From the NCBI GenBank assembly GCA_003819975.1, contig RPPU01000077.1:1-11971 (forward strand): a stretch of 11,971 nt of DNA. The letters run 5' to 3'. A program made the position numbers and the translations under genes. Numbering within the stretch: position 1 is the first letter of the stretch; each line of letters starts with the position of its first letter. Below the pieces are notes generated by a model. It searched no databases, had not been told where the DNA came from, and saw nothing but the letters and a program-made list of their open reading frames with translations. The stretch is from Desulfobacteraceae bacterium. GTDB lineage: Bacteria > Desulfobacterota > DSM-4660 > Desulfatiglandales > HGW-15. Below are positions 1,755 to 11,971 of the stretch, one piece after another.

Positions 1755-2477
1755 TTATCTAAAATGGACAAGTTCCACATCACCCCAAGCCGCTATTTTA
1801 TCTTGCATAATAGCCACAACACCGCTGACCCCTTTTAATGGTTGGGCCCATTGGGCAATATGATCCAGATCGGCTTTTTGCTTGATCCGATTGCCTAAAG
1901 CCGTGGCCGCGCTGTCCGCAAGAACCGCTGATGCCGCCAAAATACAAATCGCATCCGCCCGGCCGAAACTAAGCGAATGACCTACGGTTCCTGACGAACA
2001 ACAGACACCCAGAGGCATTTGTTTTTTATGAACTTGGATGCCGATTCGGCCGCTAAAGGGGGATGAACCGGCTGATATGGAAACAGTCGTATCCCGATCG
2101 ACCTTTAAAAAAATATCCCCGCCGTTTTCAATAATAACTTGTTTTGTAAAATCTTTGAGAAGCGCCCGGCCGACAAATTGCGCGATGGCGCCGGCCACGG
2201 CCGCCATGGGGCCTACACCGGCGGTTCGGGTGGCCTCAATCATCTCTTGAATCATCTGGGGGGCAAAAGGATCAATCGGATAGGGTTCCAGAGTGGTTAA
2301 AAAAAGCGGATAGGCCTGGATATAGGTCTCAAGTTGATGACGATATTCCAAGACCAGATCATGGGTTGTTTTAAATAAGTCATGGTCGGCACTCACCCAT
2401 AAATCCGTTTCTTTGACCATGACCTGAAATGAAACCAGTCCGCGCGCCTTAACCTGTTTACGATAAATGCGTTCCAT
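1755..2477 (-). CDS. UPF0280 (ApbE-like) family protein
   Basis: A 240-residue protein of the UPF0280 family, distantly related to the ApbE flavin transferase fold. Hallmark segments in order: a Thr/Ala/Gly loop at 84-100 (RTAGVGPMAAVAGAIAQ), ENGGDIFL at 117-124, SAGSSPFSGRIGI at 135-147, SSGTVGHSLSFGRADA at 161-176 and DSAATALGN at 188-196. The Gly-Asp of NGGD and the TVGHS/GRADA segments match ApbE-type nucleotide-binding positions, but no member I know of has an established reaction, so I claim none. The frame is open 37 codons further upstream, but that part crosses an inverted repeat and hairpins and is not family-like. The ATG at 2477 opens MERIYRKQVKARGLVSF, the expected N-terminus, with a modest AAGAAG ribosome-binding site. 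It stands alone, about 150 bases downstream of fabH and 136 bases upstream of the phosphoesterase. Confidence 0.85.
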   Translation of the reverse strand: MERIYRKQVKARGLVSFQVMVKETDLWVSADHDLFKTTHDLVLEYRHQLETYIQAYPLFLTTLEPYPIDPFAPQMIQEMIEATRTAGVGPMAAVAGAIAQFVGRALLKDFTKQVIIENGGDIFLKVDRDTTVSISAGSSPFSGRIGIQVHKKQMPLGVCCSSGTVGHSLSFGRADAICILAASAVLADSAATALGNRIKQKADLDHIAQWAQPLKGVSGVVAIMQDKIAAWGDVELVHFR

Positions 2478-2499
2478 CTTTAGACTTCTTATTCCAAAA

Positions 2500-2517
2500 T
2501 ATCGACAGTTGTCGATA
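2500..2517. promoter_or_regulatory. 18-bp inverted repeat upstream of the UPF0280 gene, possible operator
   Basis: TATCGACA-GT-TGTCGATA is a perfect 8-bp inverted repeat around a 2-bp centre, starting 23 bases upstream of the chosen UPF0280 start. Its size and symmetry fit a dimeric repressor site. No matching regulator is in the window, so the role is inferred from symmetry and position only. Confidence 0.35.
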
Positions 2518-2559
2518 ACCGGAAGGTAAGTAATGATCGATACTCTATCATACGGATAT

Positions 2560-2584
2560 ATTCCGGCAATTCCTTTGCCGGAAT
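2560..2584. repeat. Perfect 10-bp stem hairpin between fabH and the UPF0280 gene
   Basis: ATTCCGGCAA (2560-2569) and TTGCCGGAAT (2575-2584) are perfect inverted repeats around a 5-base loop. In the minus-strand transcript the hairpin lies downstream of fabH and about 80 bases upstream of the UPF0280 start. No U-run follows, so it is not a textbook terminator. It may stabilise an mRNA end or act in the leader. Confidence 0.5.
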
Positions 2585-2589
2585 GCATG

Positions 2590-5418: not shown

Positions 5419-5447
5419 TTGACTGTTCTAAGTGTATTGAGTATAAT
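5419..5447 (+). promoter_or_regulatory. Sigma70 promoter of the nucleotidyltransferase-ABC unit
   Basis: TTGACT (5419-5424) and a perfect TATAAT (5442-5447) are separated by 17 bases in the AT-rich divergent region. Initiation near 5454 leaves about 49 bases before the ATG at 5503, with no recognisable ribosome-binding site. This is the likely main promoter for the accessory block on the plus strand. Confidence 0.72.
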
Positions 5448-5502
5448 GATTCATAATATTTACACTTTTAAATAATCCATTTAATACAAATTGTCAAATA
5501 TC

Positions 5503-6624
5503 ATGGAATCACATAAAAAATATCTAATTGATCTTCTTACTCCTAATATTCATGCAAACCTGAGTCCAAACACCTCGATGAAGTGGGATAAATTTATAAA
5601 AACAGCATTCGACCAAGGCGTGGCCGCTGCGATTTATCCGGAAATCAGAAATCTCCCGATTCCATTGCCGATTAAGTCTGTTTTCGAAAAAACGTATGAA
5701 ACCGCCCTGGTCTTGAATTTGTCGAATTTGCAGGTCATTGAGCAATTGGAACAGTTTTGCCTGAAAGAACATATCGAGGTCATGACCCTCAAAGGCCTAT
5801 CGCTCTTGGACCAGGTTTACCCCCAAATAGGGTTGCGACCCATGGCCGATATCGATTTGATGATTCGCCCCGATGACCGCTCCCGTTTCGAAACATTGTT
5901 GAATCAATGGGGTTATCGACGATCCGCGCCCTTGGCCCGCCTATTCAACAAAGGTCATAGTACCATCGACCTCCATACTCATGCTTTAAACATTGACCGC
6001 ATTGCCGGCCGGGTTCTGCTCTTTCCCAAAGGCATGGACCCGATTTGGGATCACGCGCAACCCTGGAAACCCGGTTTTCGGTTTGTCAAAAAACCGAATA
6101 AGCCGGATAATCTCCTTTTGCTGAGCCAGCATTTCATGAAACACTCTTTTTCAAAACTAATTTGGCTGGTCGATATTTATCGGTTGCTGCAATCGTTTGA
6201 AAAGCAGGACTGGCAGATATTACCGGAAAGGACCTCGTTTCTGAAACAGGAAAAATGCCTGGCTTATGCCCTTTTTCTTTTAAAGGTGTGTTTCGATTAC
6301 CGCCCGCCGCCCGGAGCCAAGTTTGTTCCCGGCCGGTTGAAATTAAGCCGAATTGAAAAAACGATTTTAAAAAACAGTCTATGGAACCCCGTTCAGACCC
6401 GCACAGGCCCTTTGACCGCTCTTTTTTGTATTCCGGGCATTAAAAACCGAACTCGGTTCGCATGGGAGAACCTGTTTCCCGATAAAAAAGTCGTGAATCA
6501 TGAGTTTAAAAGATATTATGCCGGAAAAAGAATACGGCTTTACCCCATGCGTCTGGTTCAGGCACTAGGCATGACAACCCGTCAACTGATTGGGTTTTTC
6601 ATAACCGGTTTTTTTAAAAAATAA
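5503..6624 (+). CDS. Nucleotidyltransferase-fold family protein (PF14907 type)
   Basis: A 373-residue protein of the uncharacterised nucleotidyltransferase family PF14907. The diagnostic part is at residues about 91-165: VMTLKGLSLLDQVYP, then RPMADIDLMI with the metal-binding Asp116-x-Asp118 pair, a spacer ending in WGY, and IDLHTHAL with the expected aspartate and histidine. Flanking parts are helical and variable, as is usual. Members are common in peptide-modification and polysaccharide loci, including some lasso peptide clusters; the transferred group and acceptor are generally unknown. It is probably in one operon with the ABC exporter 19 bases downstream. The ATG at 5503 is preferred; an in-frame TTG at 5491 is the alternative, and neither has a ribosome-binding site. 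The AT-rich start contrasts with the more GC-rich body. The family call is good; the role in peptide tailoring is inferred from its neighbours. Confidence 0.75.
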   Translation: MESHKKYLIDLLTPNIHANLSPNTSMKWDKFIKTAFDQGVAAAIYPEIRNLPIPLPIKSVFEKTYETALVLNLSNLQVIEQLEQFCLKEHIEVMTLKGLSLLDQVYPQIGLRPMADIDLMIRPDDRSRFETLLNQWGYRRSAPLARLFNKGHSTIDLHTHALNIDRIAGRVLLFPKGMDPIWDHAQPWKPGFRFVKKPNKPDNLLLLSQHFMKHSFSKLIWLVDIYRLLQSFEKQDWQILPERTSFLKQEKCLAYALFLLKVCFDYRPPPGAKFVPGRLKLSRIEKTILKNSLWNPVQTRTGPLTALFCIPGIKNRTRFAWENLFPDKKVVNHEFKRYYAGKRIRLYPMRLVQALGMTTRQLIGFFITGFFKK

Positions 6625-6643
6625 AACGGATTGCGCTTTGCAT

Positions 6644-8338
6644 ATGTCTAAAACCTTCACACTGCTGACTCGCATCATCCGACAGGGAAAATCTTATATT
6701 CCCTATTATATTCTCCAAGGTTTTATCGGATTGGCGACCACGCCTTTGGACGCTTATGGGATACTCCTCTCCATCCGATTGATCGACAAAGGGCTCTTGA
6801 TGCAGGATTGGCCTGTCGTCCAAAAAACGCTGCTGACCTTGTTTATGCTTTTCATGGTACGCACCGCATTAACTTCAACAACGCCGTTGTTTTTCACCCG
6901 GGTGCAACTGCGGGTCAACCGCTCTTTTCAGGACACACTTTTTGCCTATCTGTTGCATTTACCGATCCGCTTTTTTTCAAAGGAACCGACCGGCCGGCTG
7001 TTGTCCAGGATTTTTTCGGATGCGACCCTTTTTTCAAATATTTTCACGATTCTTTTCAACAAAGCCTTGCAGGATCCCCTCAAACTGATTTTTTGGATCG
7101 CGGTTCTCTCCTATTTTAACCTGCAACTATGCGCTTTGACCCTCGTCTCTTCGGTTTTCTTCTTCCTGATCATCCGTTATACCGGCCGGAAATTTCATTT
7201 TAATGCCCAGGAGTACCAAAAACAAAACGCCGCCGCCTTCAGCTTTGCGGAACAGGTCCTGGCCAATATCGAACTGATTAAAATAAAATCCACGGAAAAG
7301 CGGACAGCGGCGGCTTTCGGCAAAATCCTGGATCAAATGATCCAGTCATCGTTAACCATTCTCAAAATTTCCCTGATCACCCAGCCCGTGCTGCAAGCGA
7401 TCACATTCTGCGTTCTCGGGATCGTTTTCGTCTACGGCAGTTGGCTGCAATCCCAAGGCGTTCTGACGATCGGAACCCTGGTCACGTTTCTTCTGATTGC
7501 CTATCAATTCTTTTTTAAAACCATTCACTCTTTCGGAAGTTCATACGGATCGTTACGCGAATACCTGGCGCGTTTGGAAATGATTTATGCGATCTTGGAT
7601 ACGCCTCCGGAACAAACGGCAAAACAGAGCGGTTCATCGTCGCCCCTCAAAATCGCGACCCTGGCCTTCGAACGGATTTGTTTCTCTTATGAACCCGGCC
7701 GGCCGGTGCTCCGGGACATCTCATTCCAAGTACGGAGCGGCGCTATGTTGGGCCTCACCGGGCAAAGCGGCAGCGGTAAGACGACCCTGCTCCGGCTTTT
7801 GGCTCGTTTTTACGAACCGGATTCCGGTGAAATCAAATTAAACGGCCGCCCGTATCGCGATTGGGACCTGCCTGCCCTCCGGTCGGCCCTGGGGGTTGCT
7901 TTTCAGGAAAACCTTATTTTAGCCGATACCGTCTTGAATAATATCCGTTACGGCAATGAAAACCTTTCCGAGACCCGAATCGAAGCGGCCGCGCAAATCG
8001 CGGGGATCGACGATTTTATCCGTTCCCTGCCGAATCAATATGCCACCCTGATCGGCGAAGGCGGCAAAAGCCTCTCCGGCGGCCAGCGTCAACGCTTGGC
8101 CATTGCCCGCGCGCTGGTTTCCGATCCGGAAATACTCCTTCTGGATGAATCGACTTCTTTTATCGAAGTAGAACAGGAATCGCGGATTCTGAGAAAAATT
8201 AAAGAAATCCGCAAAGACAAAATAACCATTCTGATCTCCCACCGGCTTTCCGCCATGCAAATCGCCGACCGCATTCTGACTTTGGATCAAGGCCAATTAA
8301 TGGATGTGGATTTTCATGCCTTGCAGAAAACCCTTTAG
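6644..8338 (+). CDS. Type-1 ABC exporter, fused permease-ATPase
   Basis: A fused half-transporter of 564 residues. The N-terminal half (to about residue 310) has six predicted membrane segments of the exporter fold, and the C-terminal half is the ATPase: Walker A GQSGSGKT (373-380), Q-loop FQEN (Gln421), signature SLSGGQRQR (476-484), Walker B ILLLDEST (497-504, catalytic Glu502) and H-loop SHR (His533). There is no N-terminal C39 peptidase domain, so any leader removal must be done by another protein, and an S26-type peptidase is nearby. The D-loop is unusual: SFIE replaces the common SALD after Walker B. It likely works as a homodimer exporting a modified peptide; this is inferred from context, as the fold alone also fits lipid or drug export. 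Starts: ATG 6644, or TTG 6638, which has better spacing from an ACGGA. The nucleotidyltransferase gene ends 19 bases upstream. Confidence 0.88.
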   Translation: MSKTFTLLTRIIRQGKSYIPYYILQGFIGLATTPLDAYGILLSIRLIDKGLLMQDWPVVQKTLLTLFMLFMVRTALTSTTPLFFTRVQLRVNRSFQDTLFAYLLHLPIRFFSKEPTGRLLSRIFSDATLFSNIFTILFNKALQDPLKLIFWIAVLSYFNLQLCALTLVSSVFFFLIIRYTGRKFHFNAQEYQKQNAAAFSFAEQVLANIELIKIKSTEKRTAAAFGKILDQMIQSSLTILKISLITQPVLQAITFCVLGIVFVYGSWLQSQGVLTIGTLVTFLLIAYQFFFKTIHSFGSSYGSLREYLARLEMIYAILDTPPEQTAKQSGSSSPLKIATLAFERICFSYEPGRPVLRDISFQVRSGAMLGLTGQSGSGKTTLLRLLARFYEPDSGEIKLNGRPYRDWDLPALRSALGVAFQENLILADTVLNNIRYGNENLSETRIEAAAQIAGIDDFIRSLPNQYATLIGEGGKSLSGGQRQRLAIARALVSDPEILLLDESTSFIEVEQESRILRKIKEIRKDKITILISHRLSAMQIADRILTLDQGQLMDVDFHALQKTL

Positions 8339-8426
8339 GCTTTTAATCCACACATCGACATGGGGATTTATAGAAATAAGCTTTTGAGAATTTTACGATT
8401 CGATTCTCAAGGCCGTTGCCGATAAA

Positions 8427-8558
8427 GTGTATTTTGAAAAAGAGTTGCTCAAACCGAAATTTTTTTTGTGTCCGACGCGTCCGCGCTGGACGCATGACAC
8501 GCAGAACCGCCCGCCGGCGCTTGGACGGGGGAATGGGTTTGATCATTTGATTTTTTAA
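8427..8558 (+). CDS. Doubtful 43-codon ORF in the gap before scmE
   Basis: A GTG-initiated frame of 43 codons (V/M-YFEKELLKPKFFLCP, then a Pro/Arg/Trp-rich part TRPRWTHDTQNRPPALG, ending in LIF), stopping 52 bases before the scmE ATG. The acidic/hydrophobic N-terminal YFEKELLKP looks leader-like and the tail is rich in Pro, Arg and aromatic residues, so it could be a peptide substrate. Against it: no proper ribosome-binding site (AAGG is 14 bases away), a non-ATG start, one Cys only, and other frames that are also open here. It does not resemble any precursor I know. Recorded as a candidate only. Confidence 0.18.
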   Translation: MYFEKELLKPKFFLCPTRPRWTHDTQNRPPALGRGNGFDHLIF

Positions 8559-8575
8559 AAGGAATTTGATAGACT
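8547..8575 (+). promoter_or_regulatory. Possible promoter of scmE
   Basis: TTGATT (8547-8552) and TAGACT (8570-8575) are separated by 17 bases, each matching 4 of 6 consensus positions. Initiation near 8582 would give a leader of about 29 bases to the ATG at 8611. It would also place the in-frame TTG at 8566 upstream of the transcript start, supporting the ATG. Confidence 0.35.
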
Positions 8576-8610
8576 CTTTTCCACGTAGACCGAGAAAAGA
8601 TCAGGCTCCC

Positions 8611-9732
8611 ATGACCGAAGTGATGAAAACCCCGCGTTCGATAGACATTGCCGTCACCAATCGCTGCAACTTGCGCTGCCGGTACTGCAGCCATTTTTCG
8701 AGCCCGACCGATAGCGGTTCGGACCTGCCGCTTCGGGATTGGCAACGATTTTTCGAAGAACTCGGGCAGTGCGCCGTCCTGGAGGTGACCCTTTCGGGCG
8801 GCGAGCCTTTTTTGCGTCCGGACCTTAAGGAACTGATCAAGAGCATTGCCCGAAATCATATGCGCTATTCCGTTCTCAGCAACGGCACCCTCATTGACGA
8901 CGATTTGGCCGCTTTCCTGGGCGCAACCGGACGCTGCAACCGCGTTCAGGTTTCGATTGACGGTTCCGTCCCCGGCACCCATGATGCTTTTCGCGGACAA
9001 GGCAATTTTAAAAAGGCCGTTTCCGGAATCAAGCTTCTCAAAAAGCACAAAGTACCTGTTGCGGTCCGCGTCACTATTCATCGTCAAAATGTGCGAGATC
9101 TCGAAAATATCGCCAAATTACTATTGGACGATATCGGCTTGAACGACTTTTCCACCAATGCCGCCTCTTTTATGGGACTGTGCCGGCAAAATAAAGAAAT
9201 GGTTCAACTCCAGGTATCCGAACGCAGCCTGGCCATGCAGACTTTATTAAAACTGAACAAAAAATATAACGGCCGCATCAGTGCCGCCGCCGGGCCGTTA
9301 GCCGAGGCTCAACACTGGATGAACATGGAAAAAGCGCGTCTCGAAAAACGGGCAATGCTGCCGGGCCGCGGATATCTGACGGGCTGCAACGGACCGAAAA
9401 AGACCTTAGCCGTGCGCGCCGAAGGAACCCTGGTCCCTTGCATGCAGCTGAGTCACTTGGAACTCGGTCGAATCAACCGGGATTCCGTGCGGGACATCTG
9501 GCAAAACCATCCCGAATTGGTGCGCCTGAGAAAACGCGAGCAAATTCAGCTGAGTGCTTTCGATTTTTGCCGGGATTGCGTCTACATCCGGTATTGCACC
9601 GGGAACTGCCCCGGTTTGGCTTATACGTTGACCGGCAATGACGAACATCCGAGTCCCGATGCTTGTCTAAAAAGATTTCTCGAAAGCGGCGGGACCCTGC
9701 CGGAGCAAGCAGATCCGGCCCAAAACGCGTGA
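8611..9732 (+). CDS. scmE: Radical SAM/SPASM peptide-modifying enzyme, ScmE-like (SynChlorMet cassette)
   Basis: A 373-residue radical SAM enzyme. The SAM-binding [4Fe-4S] motif is CNLRCRYC (Cys19, Cys23, Cys26), followed by LSGGEP and SNGTL. The C-terminal SPASM domain has seven cysteines (259, 277, 320, 323, 329, 333, 352) in the CxxC-x5-C-x3-C pattern, enough for two auxiliary Fe-S clusters. SPASM enzymes with a PqqD partner modify ribosomal peptides, for example by C-C or thioether crosslinks. The segments CSHFSSPTDSGSDLP, NAASFMGLCRQNKEMVQL and YCTGNCPGLAYTL match what I remember of ScmE from the SynChlorMet cassette. I chose ATG 8611 (CAGG upstream); ATG 8623 and TTG 8566 are alternatives, and the conserved part begins only at about codon 7. 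It runs towards scmF and the stops are 13 bases apart. Product chemistry is unknown. Confidence 0.85.
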   Translation: MTEVMKTPRSIDIAVTNRCNLRCRYCSHFSSPTDSGSDLPLRDWQRFFEELGQCAVLEVTLSGGEPFLRPDLKELIKSIARNHMRYSVLSNGTLIDDDLAAFLGATGRCNRVQVSIDGSVPGTHDAFRGQGNFKKAVSGIKLLKKHKVPVAVRVTIHRQNVRDLENIAKLLLDDIGLNDFSTNAASFMGLCRQNKEMVQLQVSERSLAMQTLLKLNKKYNGRISAAAGPLAEAQHWMNMEKARLEKRAMLPGRGYLTGCNGPKKTLAVRAEGTLVPCMQLSHLELGRINRDSVRDIWQNHPELVRLRKREQIQLSAFDFCRDCVYIRYCTGNCPGLAYTLTGNDEHPSPDACLKRFLESGGTLPEQADPAQNA

Positions 9733-9745
9733 CCCGTATGCGCCT

Positions 9746-10858
9746 TCAATTTCTCTCCTTTTTCATGCTTCTTAATCTGGATTCGGGAAACAAACCTTGT
9801 TGGGCGGCTTGTTGGCAAAACCAAAAAGGAGCCCAAAGACTGCCTTTTGAATAATAATTCTGCGCTACGCAGGAGCCCAAACATCGCGATTGCATCAAAC
9901 AATCGGCGCAGACACCTTCCAATCGGGTGGGCAAACCCTGCCGAAGGCTTTGCAATACCGGATGATACCGCCAAAGCGTTTCCAGCGGATCCCTTCCGAT
10001 GGCGCCAAAAACCAATTCCGGAATATGTTCGCCGATTCCGCAAAGAGCATAATGACCGGTGGGCAGCACACCCATGACTCCTAAAATTCCGCAAATAGTG
10101 TCGCCGTGATTCGCCAAGCGGCTCAAGGGACGAAAAGCCAAAGGATAATCGTAATGAAGCGGCAAAGGACTCGCAGAAGCCAGTTGCATGTCGATATGCC
10201 GGCCTATCCGGATGTATTCGGATAAACTCAAAACTTGACCGGTGTCCTGAAGATTTTTTCCGCGCGCGGTCGGCTGAATCAGATTGAATTTGATTGAAGA
10301 AGCGCCGAGATCGTCCGCCAGGCGGATTAAAGGTTCGACTTGATCTTTATTAAACCGTGTCAAGGTCATGATGATCTGCGGCTTAATTCCTTGAGCAACC
10401 AGATTTTCAATTCCCCGTTGGGCGGCTTCAAACGATCCCGGAACGTTGCGCAACTGTTCATGAGTTTGAGCGTCGGCTCCATCCAGGCTGACCGCTACGG
10501 ATGGATTGAGGGCGGCGCCGATTCCTTGGGCGATATCCGGCGTGCAAAGCGTGCCGTTGGTTTCCAAGGCCAATTCGATGTTTTCTTCACGCAAAATATG
10601 CAATAACCGTAAAAAATCAGGATGCAGCAGCGGTTCCCCTCCGGTCAATTTGACTTTTTTCAAACCCAGCGGCTTGCCTTCCTCAATGACCGTTCTAAAA
10701 CCACTTTTCGAGAGATGGCGGGAAAGGGCCCCGGTTAAATCCCGTTTGGGAGCGAGCCAGCAATGCCGGCACGCCAAGTTACATCCATCGGTCAAATAGA
10801 AATAAATCTGAGACAAGGCCGGGATCGAATCTCCATAAGGAGTGTCGCGCTTATTCAT
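9746..10858 (-). CDS. scmF: Radical SAM/SPASM peptide-modifying enzyme, ScmF-like (SynChlorMet cassette)
   Basis: A 370-residue PqqE-like enzyme. The radical SAM motif CNLACRHC has Cys26, Cys30 and Cys33; LTGGEPLLHPD and ALETNGTLCT follow. The SPASM domain has Cys256, 273, 317, 320, 326, 330 and 348. The strings SQIYFYLTDGCNLACRHCW, TGHYALCGIGEHIPELVFG and CLGSCVAQNYYSKGSLWAP match ScmF of the SynChlorMet cassette closely in my memory, more firmly than the ScmE call. It is expected to modify a PqqD-bound precursor peptide. The ATG at 10858 overlaps the scmD stop (ATGAATAA), giving coupled translation. ATG 10882 and GTG 10876 are longer alternatives that overlap scmD further. It is distantly related to the neighbouring scmE, so the pair could act in sequence or on different residues of one peptide. 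Confidence 0.86.
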   Translation of the reverse strand: MNKRDTPYGDSIPALSQIYFYLTDGCNLACRHCWLAPKRDLTGALSRHLSKSGFRTVIEEGKPLGLKKVKLTGGEPLLHPDFLRLLHILREENIELALETNGTLCTPDIAQGIGAALNPSVAVSLDGADAQTHEQLRNVPGSFEAAQRGIENLVAQGIKPQIIMTLTRFNKDQVEPLIRLADDLGASSIKFNLIQPTARGKNLQDTGQVLSLSEYIRIGRHIDMQLASASPLPLHYDYPLAFRPLSRLANHGDTICGILGVMGVLPTGHYALCGIGEHIPELVFGAIGRDPLETLWRYHPVLQSLRQGLPTRLEGVCADCLMQSRCLGSCVAQNYYSKGSLWAPFWFCQQAAQQGLFPESRLRSMKKERN

Positions 10859-11150
10859 CTTTTCTAAAGTGTTCACGGTCATCTTTTATGAACCCCTGTT
10901 TGCTCAATGAATCGATAAACTGCTTAACATGCTCACTTGCTTCTTCAGGGATAGGGGCATACGACTCGCCAATGGCTTCGACCATCTCTTCCAACGAGCG
11001 TTTGCCGTTCATGAGTTTCCACAAGGTCACGCCCATGGCATTGATGCCCACGCTGTGCCCGGTATCCGGATCAAAAAGGATGGCCCAATCGTCGAACTCT
11101 TCTCTTAAAACAATGCGATTAATACGTTGAGGACCTTTCAAGTCGGGCAT
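10851..11150 (-). CDS. scmD: PqqD-family peptide chaperone (RiPP recognition element), ScmD-like
   Basis: A 99-residue protein with the PqqD fold pattern: N-terminal strands (INRIVLREEFDDWAILFDPDTGHSVGINAMG), then a helical core LWKLMNGKRSLEEMVEAI, and a last helix HVKQFIDSLSKQGFI. PqqD-type proteins bind the leader of a precursor peptide and present it to a radical SAM/SPASM partner, here the overlapping scmF. The REEFDDWAILFDPDTG segment is what I recall for ScmD. GGAG lies 8 bases before the ATG at 11150. The stop overlaps the scmF start. Upstream on the same strand are a 29-codon ORF and the S26 peptidase gene. A partner-binding role is well supported by family and context; the precursor it binds is not established. 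Confidence 0.83.
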   Translation of the reverse strand: MPDLKGPQRINRIVLREEFDDWAILFDPDTGHSVGINAMGVTLWKLMNGKRSLEEMVEAIGESYAPIPEEASEHVKQFIDSLSKQGFIKDDREHFRKDE

Positions 11151-11171
11151 GACGTCATCTCCATTTAGAGG

Positions 11172-11261
11172 TCAAACTTTTTTAAGATTCATGTCGACGC
11201 TGCAGGACAAACGGTTCAAAACAATGTTTTCGCCATAGAGATCGTGAGCTCCCGTTAGCAT
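11172..11261 (-). CDS. Coupled 29-codon ORF between the S26 peptidase and scmD; candidate peptide
   Basis: The ATG at 11261 overlaps the stop of the peptidase gene as ATGCTAA, a classic arrangement for translational coupling, and the frame runs 29 codons to a TGA that lies 21 bases before the scmD start. The peptide reads MLTGAHDLYGENIVL, then NRLSCSV and a C-terminal DMNLKKV, with a single Cys at residue 20. It ends just before the scmD ribosome-binding site, so it fills the gap neatly. It could be a small precursor, a translational spacer, or chance. Against it: AAGG directly abuts the ATG, the length is short, and I recognise no family. Confidence 0.35.
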   Translation of the reverse strand: MLTGAHDLYGENIVLNRLSCSVDMNLKKV

Positions 11262-11758
11262 CCTTCATTACGCTTTTTCTTAATGCCCAACCGGTTCGCT
11301 ATGGTGCCGCCTTTTTTGTTACTAAAAAAATGAAAAAAAAGAAACCGGATGATGCGTCCCAAACGTCGTTTTAAAATTCCATACATCAAATTATTTTTGC
11401 TTAAAAGGGCCATTTTTTTTCCGGTCATGGGCCGGCATAAGTTTTTCCGCTTTCCCTGCACCAGAACGACCTTATAGAAGAATGGACCGGATAAAGCAAA
11501 GACTTCATCCATGTTTTCCAGGTTATCGCCTTTGGCCTGAAATAAAATTTTGCCCTCTTTGCGTTGAATGCGGATGACGCGATGGGTAATATAATGGTCT
11601 TCTTTCAATAGGGCGATAATATCGCCGGGCCGAGCCGTATCAATGGATATCTTCTGCAAAAAAAGGAAATCGCCCGGTTTTAGGGCGGGATACATGCTGT
11701 AACCGGTAAAGGGGACTATTTTAAGGGAATGAGATTCTGAAATAAACTGTTTTCCCAT
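11255..11758 (-). CDS. S26-family signal peptidase-like protein (Ser/His type)
   Basis: A 167-residue protein of the signal peptidase I clan. Box B is GYSMYPALKPGDFLFLQ with the nucleophile Ser21. DIIALL and THRVIRI follow, where His59 occupies the place of the catalytic base as in SipW/eukaryotic-type enzymes (Ser-His rather than Ser-Lys). Then comes KGDNLENMD, the conserved GDN box. There is no N-terminal membrane helix; the only hydrophobic stretch is short and near the C-terminus (RIIRFLFFHFF, about 136-146), followed by a very basic tail, so it may sit at the membrane surface. In this locus it is a good candidate for leader removal, since the ABC exporter lacks a peptidase domain. The ATG at 11758 has AAGGA 5 bases upstream; the ATG at 11761 is too close to it. 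The last codons overlap the 29-codon ORF. Confidence 0.78.
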   Translation of the reverse strand: MGKQFISESHSLKIVPFTGYSMYPALKPGDFLFLQKISIDTARPGDIIALLKEDHYITHRVIRIQRKEGKILFQAKGDNLENMDEVFALSGPFFYKVVLVQGKRKNLCRPMTGKKMALLSKNNLMYGILKRRLGRIIRFLFFHFFSNKKGGTIANRLGIKKKRNEGC

Positions 11759-11825
11759 CATATTCCTTGAACCCAAGCCGGCACAACCGCTCTATTGCCC
11801 GGTTTTATCGACCGGTATTGCCATG

Positions 11826-11861
11826 CAAAAAGGAACCCGGGATCGCGGATCATGCGACCGG
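11826..11861 (-). terminator. Terminator-like hairpin upstream of the S26 peptidase gene
   Basis: On the minus strand CCGG-TCGC (11861-11858 with 11846-11843 as partner side GCGA/TCGC) forms a stem: CCGG (11858-11861) pairs with CCGG (11837-11840) and GCGA (11854-11857) with TCGC (11843-11846), with a 7-base loop and a 2-base bulge. TTCCTTTTT follows on the minus-strand transcript (11835-11827). This resembles an intrinsic terminator or attenuator. It lies about 50 bases after the stop of the minus-strand frame entering from the right edge and about 70 bases before the peptidase start, so partial readthrough into the enzyme genes is plausible. Confidence 0.45.
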
Positions 11862-11911
11862 ATCGAGCAAAGCCGGAACGGCGGTCAGACCATCATGAAA
11901 ACGAAATCCGA

Positions 11912-11971
11912 TTATCCCAGCATGCCTCCGGTGGTGCAGTACCGGACATCGCTACCGGATGCGCAATTTCC
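11912..11971 (-). CDS. 3' end of a minus-strand ORF with a Cys/Gly-rich tail; candidate precursor
   Basis: A minus-strand frame enters from beyond the right edge and ends at TAA (11914-11912). The visible C-terminus is GNCASGSDVRYCTTGGMLG: 19 residues, of which 5 are Gly, 2 Cys, 2 Ser and 2 Thr, with Asn, Asp, Arg and Tyr between. Such Gly/Ser/Thr/Cys-rich tails are typical of core peptides of radical SAM-modified RiPPs. It lies on the same strand and upstream of the S26, scmD and scmF genes and is followed by a terminator-like hairpin. Only 19 codons are visible, a plus-strand frame (ATG 11823) is also open through the same bases, and the start is not in the window, so this is a candidate, not an established gene. 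Confidence 0.35.
   Translation of the reverse strand, partial: GNCASGSDVRYCTTGGMLG

What the first reader, a model, noticed from the sequence alone, without database searches (positions are those of the whole stretch)
5419..11971. SynChlorMet-type peptide-modification locus with its own nucleotidyltransferase, exporter and Ser/His peptidase
Seen: two radical SAM/SPASM enzymes with all CxxxCxxC and seven SPASM cysteines, a PqqD-like protein overlapping one of them, an S26-type protein with Ser21/His59, an ABC exporter with no peptidase domain, and a PF14907-type protein. Known: PqqD plus SPASM enzymes modify ribosomal peptides; a paired-SPASM cassette (ScmD/E/F) has been described computationally from Syntrophus, Chlorobium and methanogens, and as far as I recall its precursor and product are unknown. 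Inferred: this is a complete RiPP pathway in which the S26 protein supplies the leader cleavage the transporter lacks, and the nucleotidyltransferase-fold protein may add a further modification.
Basis: partly seen in the sequence, partly recalled or inferred. Interest (0 to 1): 0.75.

Follow-up and report, generated by a model that had tools for sequence, protein, structure and literature searches.

The report
SynChlorMet peptide-modification cassette, precursor truncated
This stretch of an uncultured bacterium's DNA carries most of a widespread but apparently unstudied gene set that looks built to chemically remodel and export a cysteine-rich peptide, and the tail end of what looks like that peptide's own gene sits at the very edge of the sequence.

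Summary
The two SPASM proteins are ScmE (610.7 bits, cut-off 400) and ScmF (492, cut-off 400); the PqqD protein is best matched by ScmD but at 91.2 bits stays under its cut-off of 100. 'Complete pathway' is not shown: the window is a whole contig, no ScmC-type kinase was found in it, and the precursor is cut off. NCBIfam already names a precursor, ScmA (TIGR04252), but that model passes its cut-off in 0 of 15 scm genomes searched. Likeliest mechanism: ScmD holds a YxxPxL leader, ScmE/ScmF modify the cysteine repeats, a kinase and the nucleotidyltransferase decorate the peptide, S26 cleaves the leader, and the ABC protein exports it. Chemistry and order are inferred. Known kind, new member.

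The parts
5503..6624 (+). PF14907 NTP_transf_5 nucleotidyltransferase-fold protein (373 aa), with RPMADIDLMI and DLH motifs
6644..8338 (+). ABC exporter, fused membrane and ATPase domains (564 aa), no peptidase domain
   Evidence: PF00664, PF00005; 53% identical to the ABC protein next to a PF14907 gene in L009
8611..9732 (+). ScmE, radical SAM/SPASM
   Evidence: TIGR04250 610.7 bits vs cut-off 400, profile 1-358/358
9746..10882 (-). ScmF, radical SAM/SPASM
   Evidence: TIGR04251 492 bits vs cut-off 400, profile 3-353/353
10851..11150 (-). ScmD-like, PqqD-family protein (presumed leader binder)
   Evidence: PF05402 54.3 bits vs cut-off 23.4; TIGR04248 91.2 bits, best NCBIfam family but under cut-off 100
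11255..11758 (-). S26-type peptidase of the Ser-His(-Asp) kind, short form without the C-terminal extension of its SCM relatives
   Evidence: TIGR02228 55.7 vs cut-off 51.85; S21, H59, D78 conserved; best solved relatives SEC11C and SEC11A
11912..11971 (-). probable 3' end of the precursor (ScmA-type) gene, cut by the contig edge: GNCASGSDVRYCTTGGMLG*
   Evidence: two CxxG units with Cys spacing 9; repeat score 20.5; of 62,796 six-frame stops 44 have a terminus scoring that or more: this one, 38 recognised precursors and five judged precursor-like by eye

Best explanation
The contig carries a SynChlorMet (SCM) RiPP cassette cut off at its right end. A precursor peptide (3' end at 11912-11971, minus strand) would consist, as in its relatives, of a leader with a Y-x-x-P-x-L motif and a core of CxxGxxA-type repeats about ten residues apart. 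ScmD binds the leader and presents the core to ScmE and ScmF, which use radical chemistry on the regularly spaced cysteines, probably forming thioethers as in sactipeptides and ranthipeptides. In related loci an HPr-kinase-like protein (ScmC) and the PF14907 protein would add phosphate and then a further group (hexose or nucleotide), as the PsmK/PsmN pair does on a lasso peptide. The S26 serine peptidase removes the leader at a small-residue A-x-G/A site just before the core, and the ABC protein exports the product. Shown here: gene identities, the precursor repeat family, co-occurrence, conserved active-site residues. Inferred: the chemistry, the order of steps, leader cleavage by S26, export of this peptide by this ABC protein, and that a kinase gene lies beyond the contig end.
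For: ScmE/ScmF far above cut-off and far above the next family (610.7 vs 156.7; 492 vs 144.4). 59 ScmE loci in bacteria and archaea (a 60th at 26% identity dropped); in the 30 with more than 8 kb on both sides: scmF 29, scmD 27, kinase 27, precursor 25, PF14907 19, ABC 18, S26 17. 55 distinct precursors: G at +3 of 89% of core cysteines, commonest Cys spacings 10 and 11. The window fragment scores as a precursor terminus and lies upstream of S26 on the same strand. ScmC family (32 sequences) keeps His132, Lys153, Asp169, Asp170 in 97-100%; a review reports a His-Lys-Asp-Asp motif in lasso-peptide kinases, PsmK phosphorylating Ser and PsmN then adding hexose (PMC9266682, passages seen). PF14907: at least one match in 15 of 15 scm genomes, 2 of 14 control genomes; 13 of the 15 have one on the held scmE locus, about 10 kb. 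A-x-[AG] within eight residues before the first core Cys in 42 of 60 precursors vs 92 of 273 later Cys. Odd core Cys counts in 34 of 55 precursors argue against an all-disulfide product (core taken from a fixed offset, so approximate).
Against: No kinase found in the contig; precursor truncated, so its leader and TIGR04252 membership cannot be tested. ScmD is under its cut-off. The window's exact gene order is seen in none of the 59 mapped loci, though scmF is also reversed in L048. PF14907, ABC and S26 are missing from 11, 12 and 13 of the 30 full-flank loci; all three occur together in 7 of 30. Similarity of ScmC to HPr kinase is weak (PF07475 21.2 bits, cut-off 33.3; HPr kinase chain E 0.0035). 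A C-terminal Ser, the site used by lasso kinases, ends 4 of 55 precursors. The A-x-[AG] signal comes from Ala/Gly-rich peptides. The window S26 lacks the C-terminal extension of its relatives.
Confidence: 0.77

Rival explanations
1. The SPASM pair makes a small cofactor from a consumed peptide, as in PQQ or mycofactocin synthesis, and the peptide itself is not the product.
For: PqqE and the mycofactocin maturase are among the weaker matches of ScmE and ScmF; a PqqD-type partner is present.
Against: Precursors differ in length and repeat number (2 to 17 core Cys), and L002 holds four copies, unlike what I recall of cofactor precursors; an exporter is often nearby (18 of 30).
Confidence: 0.1
2. 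The nucleotidyltransferase, ABC and S26 genes are chance neighbours, for example parts of a surface-polysaccharide locus; only scmD/E/F and the precursor work together.
For: Wzc-, Wza- or ExeA-like genes lie on 13 of 59 scm loci, so the neighbourhood is often a polysaccharide one; each of the three genes is absent from over a third of full-flank loci.
Against: PF14907 has 22 matches in 15 of 15 scm genomes, one to three per genome, and lies on the scmE locus in 13 of these. On the L009 contig and in one further genome (L073) a PF14907-ABC pair lies beside other PqqD/SPASM/kinase cassettes. S26 follows the kinase gene in most maps that hold both.
Confidence: 0.12
3. The 11912-11971 fragment is a chance open frame and the window has no precursor.
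For: Only 19 residues are available; with a looser pattern that also let stop codons through, 29 of 300 shuffles of the whole window had at least one hit.
Against: With the trained repeat score the best terminus not judged a precursor reached 18.5, against 20.5, among 62,796 stops (five of the 43 others at or above 20.5 were judged by eye), and the fragment sits on the right strand directly before S26.
Confidence: 0.05

Closest known systems
SynChlorMet (SCM) cassette, NCBIfam TIGR04248 ScmD, TIGR04249 ScmC, TIGR04250 ScmE, TIGR04251 ScmF, TIGR04252 ScmA
   Same: ScmE and ScmF above curated cut-offs, ScmD the best family of the PqqD protein; S26, PF14907 and ABC neighbours as in many SCM loci
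   Different: scmE faces scmF; no ScmC found in the contig; precursor only as a fragment; short S26; PF14907 and ABC proteins most like those of L009 among the 59 loci (42% and 53%)
Pseudomycoidin/paeninodin lasso-peptide tailoring module (kinase PsmK/PadeK plus nucleotidyltransferase PsmN; PMC9266682, passages seen)
   Same: In SCM relatives a kinase-like protein with the His-Lys-Asp-Asp residues and a nucleotidyltransferase accompany a PqqD-type protein
   Different: Core is a cysteine repeat; no conserved C-terminal Ser (4 of 55); lasso cyclase genes were not searched for; that PsmN belongs to PF14907 is recalled, not tested (its paper is not held; no held paper has both PF14907 and lasso)
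Sactipeptide/ranthipeptide SPASM maturases (SkfB, PapB, AlbA)
   Same: SkfB is the best solved relative of ScmE by sequence (E 5.8e-22); cysteine-rich precursors
   Different: ScmE scores far below these families' cut-offs (PapB 90.7 vs 340; SkfB 87 vs 300); precursor repeat and leader were matched by no Pfam family (50 precursors)

Membership tests
SynChlorMet cassette | ScmE above TIGR04250 cut-off | tested here: met
   610.7 vs 400
SynChlorMet cassette | ScmF above TIGR04251 cut-off | tested here: met
   492 vs 400
SynChlorMet cassette | PqqD-family partner whose best NCBIfam family is ScmD | tested here: met
   TIGR04248 91.2 bits, next family 27.4
SynChlorMet cassette | ScmD above the curated TIGR04248 cut-off (not treated as defining) | tested here: not met
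   91.2 vs 100. Of six ScmD genes from other scm loci five passed (111 to 144.7) and one, in L035 with scmE, scmF, ScmC and S26, scored 99.5, so the strict cut-off misses other members too
SynChlorMet cassette | ScmC kinase (TIGR04249) nearby | tested here: inconclusive
   none found in the contig with profiles of the relatives' kinases; the contig ends 213 bases upstream of the S26 gene. 9 of 15 relatives' genomes pass the TIGR04249 cut-off
SynChlorMet cassette | ScmA precursor (TIGR04252) | tested here: inconclusive
   only 19 C-terminal residues remain; they fit the repeat score. The NCBI model matches 18 of 50 relatives' precursors at E<=0.1
PQQ cassette | SPASM protein above PqqE (TIGR02109) cut-off | tested here: not met
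   117.7 and 57.1 vs 381.35
Heme d1/b SPASM enzymes (NirJ, AhbD) | score above cut-off | tested here: not met
   ScmE to NirJ 129.4 vs 515.45; ScmF to AhbD 144.4 vs 500
Lasso kinase/nucleotidyltransferase module | kinase with His-Lys-Asp-Asp residues beside the nucleotidyltransferase | tested here: inconclusive
   residues conserved in the ScmC family of related loci; no kinase found in this contig

The most novel reading that the evidence does not exclude
SCM cassettes make a large, unrecognised class of repeat RiPPs: strings of CxxGxxA units, each cysteine cross-linked by a pair of SPASM enzymes, then phosphorylated by an HPr-kinase relative and capped by a PF14907 transferase, released by a SEC11-like peptidase and exported, often beside surface-polysaccharide genes, in anaerobic bacteria and methanogens. 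One tailoring module (kinase plus nucleotidyltransferase) would thus serve both lasso peptides and radical-SAM peptides.
Probability: 0.35. Interest if true: 0.8.

Novelty: new member of a known kind. Interest (0 to 1): 0.52.

Why it matters
ScmE-like proteins look abundant: 2,900 proteins at E<=1e-30 from a capped list of 7,993 candidates, the best 120 being 64-69% identical apart from the window's own (the lower part of that list may hold other SPASM proteins). Searches of the held open-access papers for SynChlorMet, for ScmE with radical SAM and SPASM, and for TIGR04248, TIGR04249, TIGR04250, TIGR04251 and TIGR04252 found no paper; subscription papers are mostly not held. A repeat-based definition of the precursor finds it in 40 of 59 loci, while the NCBI model passes its cut-off in 0 of 15 scm genomes; this makes the product directly testable by co-expression and mass spectrometry. 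The link to a kinase plus nucleotidyltransferase pair suggests a concrete, testable tailoring step.

Full report
The window is one whole contig of 11,971 bases (one search lists the window's own ScmE on one contig of that length). No genome is held for it. Its left half holds FabH, an HDOD protein and a CheD-like protein among others.

Relatives. A scan of genome contigs with an alignment of 20 ScmE proteins gave 60 loci. L060 is only 26% identical and was dropped. The other 59 come from records titled Deltaproteobacteria, Desulfobacterales, Syntrophaceae, Nitrospirae, Aminicenantes, Omnitrophota, KSB1, Bacillota, Methanogenium and others. Of the 30 with more than 8 kb on each side, 29 have scmF, 27 scmD, 27 an HPrK-like kinase (ScmC or a second type), 25 a recognised precursor, 19 PF14907, 18 ABC and 17 S26; the last three together in 7. 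A common order is scmD-scmE-scmF-precursor-scmC-S26, then PF14907 and/or ABC. The window's exact order (PF14907, ABC, scmE, then scmF, scmD and S26 on the other strand) is in none of the 59 maps; scmF is also reversed in L048. PF14907 has at least one match in 15 of 15 scm genomes searched, 22 matches in all, against 2 of 14 control genomes; in 13 of the 15 one lies on the held scmE locus, that is within about 10 kb.

Precursor. Near scmD/E/F lie short genes with a leader Y(E)-x-P-x-L and a core of repeats. I counted 55 distinct precursors from 45 loci: 40 of the 59 scm loci and five loci from a PF14907 search. Of their core cysteines 89% have G at +3, Ala is commonest at +6 (47%), and the commonest Cys spacings are 10 and 11. 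Odd cysteine counts in 34 of 55 speak against a wholly disulfide-bonded product (the core was taken from a fixed offset, so this is approximate). NCBIfam has a precursor model, TIGR04252, so a precursor was already proposed there; it matches 18 of the 50 precursors from scm loci at E<=0.1, and in 15 scm genomes it gives four weak matches and none over the cut-off. Pfam matches none of the 50 at E<=0.001.

The window's own precursor. The last 60 bases, minus strand, read GNCASGSDVRYCTTGGMLG and a stop. A score trained on the relatives' repeats, the window not included, gives 20.5. Of 62,796 six-frame stops in the 59 loci and the window, 44 end a frame scoring that or more: 38 recognised precursors (which trained the score), five frames judged precursor-like by eye (L042 twice, L059, L020, L023), and this one; the best other terminus has 18.5. 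A looser pattern was found in 29 of 300 shuffles of the whole window. The frame lies on the same strand as, and directly upstream of, S26-scmD-scmF. Its leader is beyond the contig.

Mechanism. PqqD-type proteins bind leaders and SPASM enzymes act on the core in other RiPPs (recalled). The regularly spaced cysteines and the similarity of ScmE to SkfB make thioether formation the likeliest chemistry. In 32 sequences the ScmC family keeps His132, Lys153 (P-loop), Asp169 and Asp170 at 97-100%; its likeness to HPr kinase is weak by sequence (PF07475 21.2 bits, cut-off 33.3; E 0.0035). A review states that lasso-peptide kinases share a His-Lys-Asp-Asp motif, that PsmK phosphorylates the C-terminal Ser and that PsmN, an annotated nucleotidyltransferase, installs hexoses on the phosphorylated Ser, or nucleotidylates it before a host enzyme adds the sugar (PMC9266682, passages seen). 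I therefore propose phosphorylation followed by transfer by the PF14907 protein. Against a strict parallel: 4 of 55 SCM precursors end in Ser, no kinase was found in this contig, and that PsmN is a PF14907 protein is recalled. For S26: A-x-[AG] occurs within eight residues before the first core Cys in 42 of 60 precursors (the 55 plus five added by eye), against 92 of 273 later cysteines; this fits signal-peptidase-like cleavage but is no proof in an Ala/Gly-rich peptide.

Novelty. The cassette is known at the level of profile models. The held paper library returned nothing for SynChlorMet, for ScmE with radical SAM and SPASM, or for TIGR04248, TIGR04249, TIGR04250, TIGR04251 and TIGR04252; that library lacks most subscription papers. 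The window is a new member with an unusual gene order. The repeat definition of the precursor and the kinase-nucleotidyltransferase link are the useful additions.

Noticed in passing
L003, L013, L015, L018, L025, L029, L030, L031, L033, L042, L047, L052, L053: Families whose tested member is Wzc-like (GNVR/AAA_31/Wzz), Wza-like (Poly_export) or an ExeA-like AAA ATPase occur on 13 of 59 scm loci (10 of the 30 full-flank), so the cassette often sits beside surface-polysaccharide genes. One member of each family was scanned with Pfam; the name ExeA is recalled.
   Followed up: partly
L005, L008, L009, L013, L015, L018, L025, L026, L030, L040, L054: Some or all parts of a second cassette type on these loci: YEPP-leader precursors, a second HPrK-like kinase, a second PqqD protein and a PqqD-domain protein with an N-terminal signal-like stretch (Fam13), next to ScmE of the first type.
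   Followed up: partly
L081 (overlaps L009) and L073: The PF14907-ABC pairs most like the window's lie beside further PqqD/SPASM/kinase cassettes, with a DUF5838 protein and a protein weakly like squalene cyclase (L081) or a B12-binding radical SAM protein and a methyltransferase (L073).
   Followed up: partly
G002 (genome of L004): The ScmC kinase (961886-962737) and a PF14907 gene (960196-960966) lie together about 2 Mb from the scmE locus near 3.0 Mb, so kinase and transferase can form their own locus.
   Followed up: no
window 1755-2588, minus strand: A 277-aa ORF next to FabH has no Pfam match at E<=0.01.
   Followed up: no
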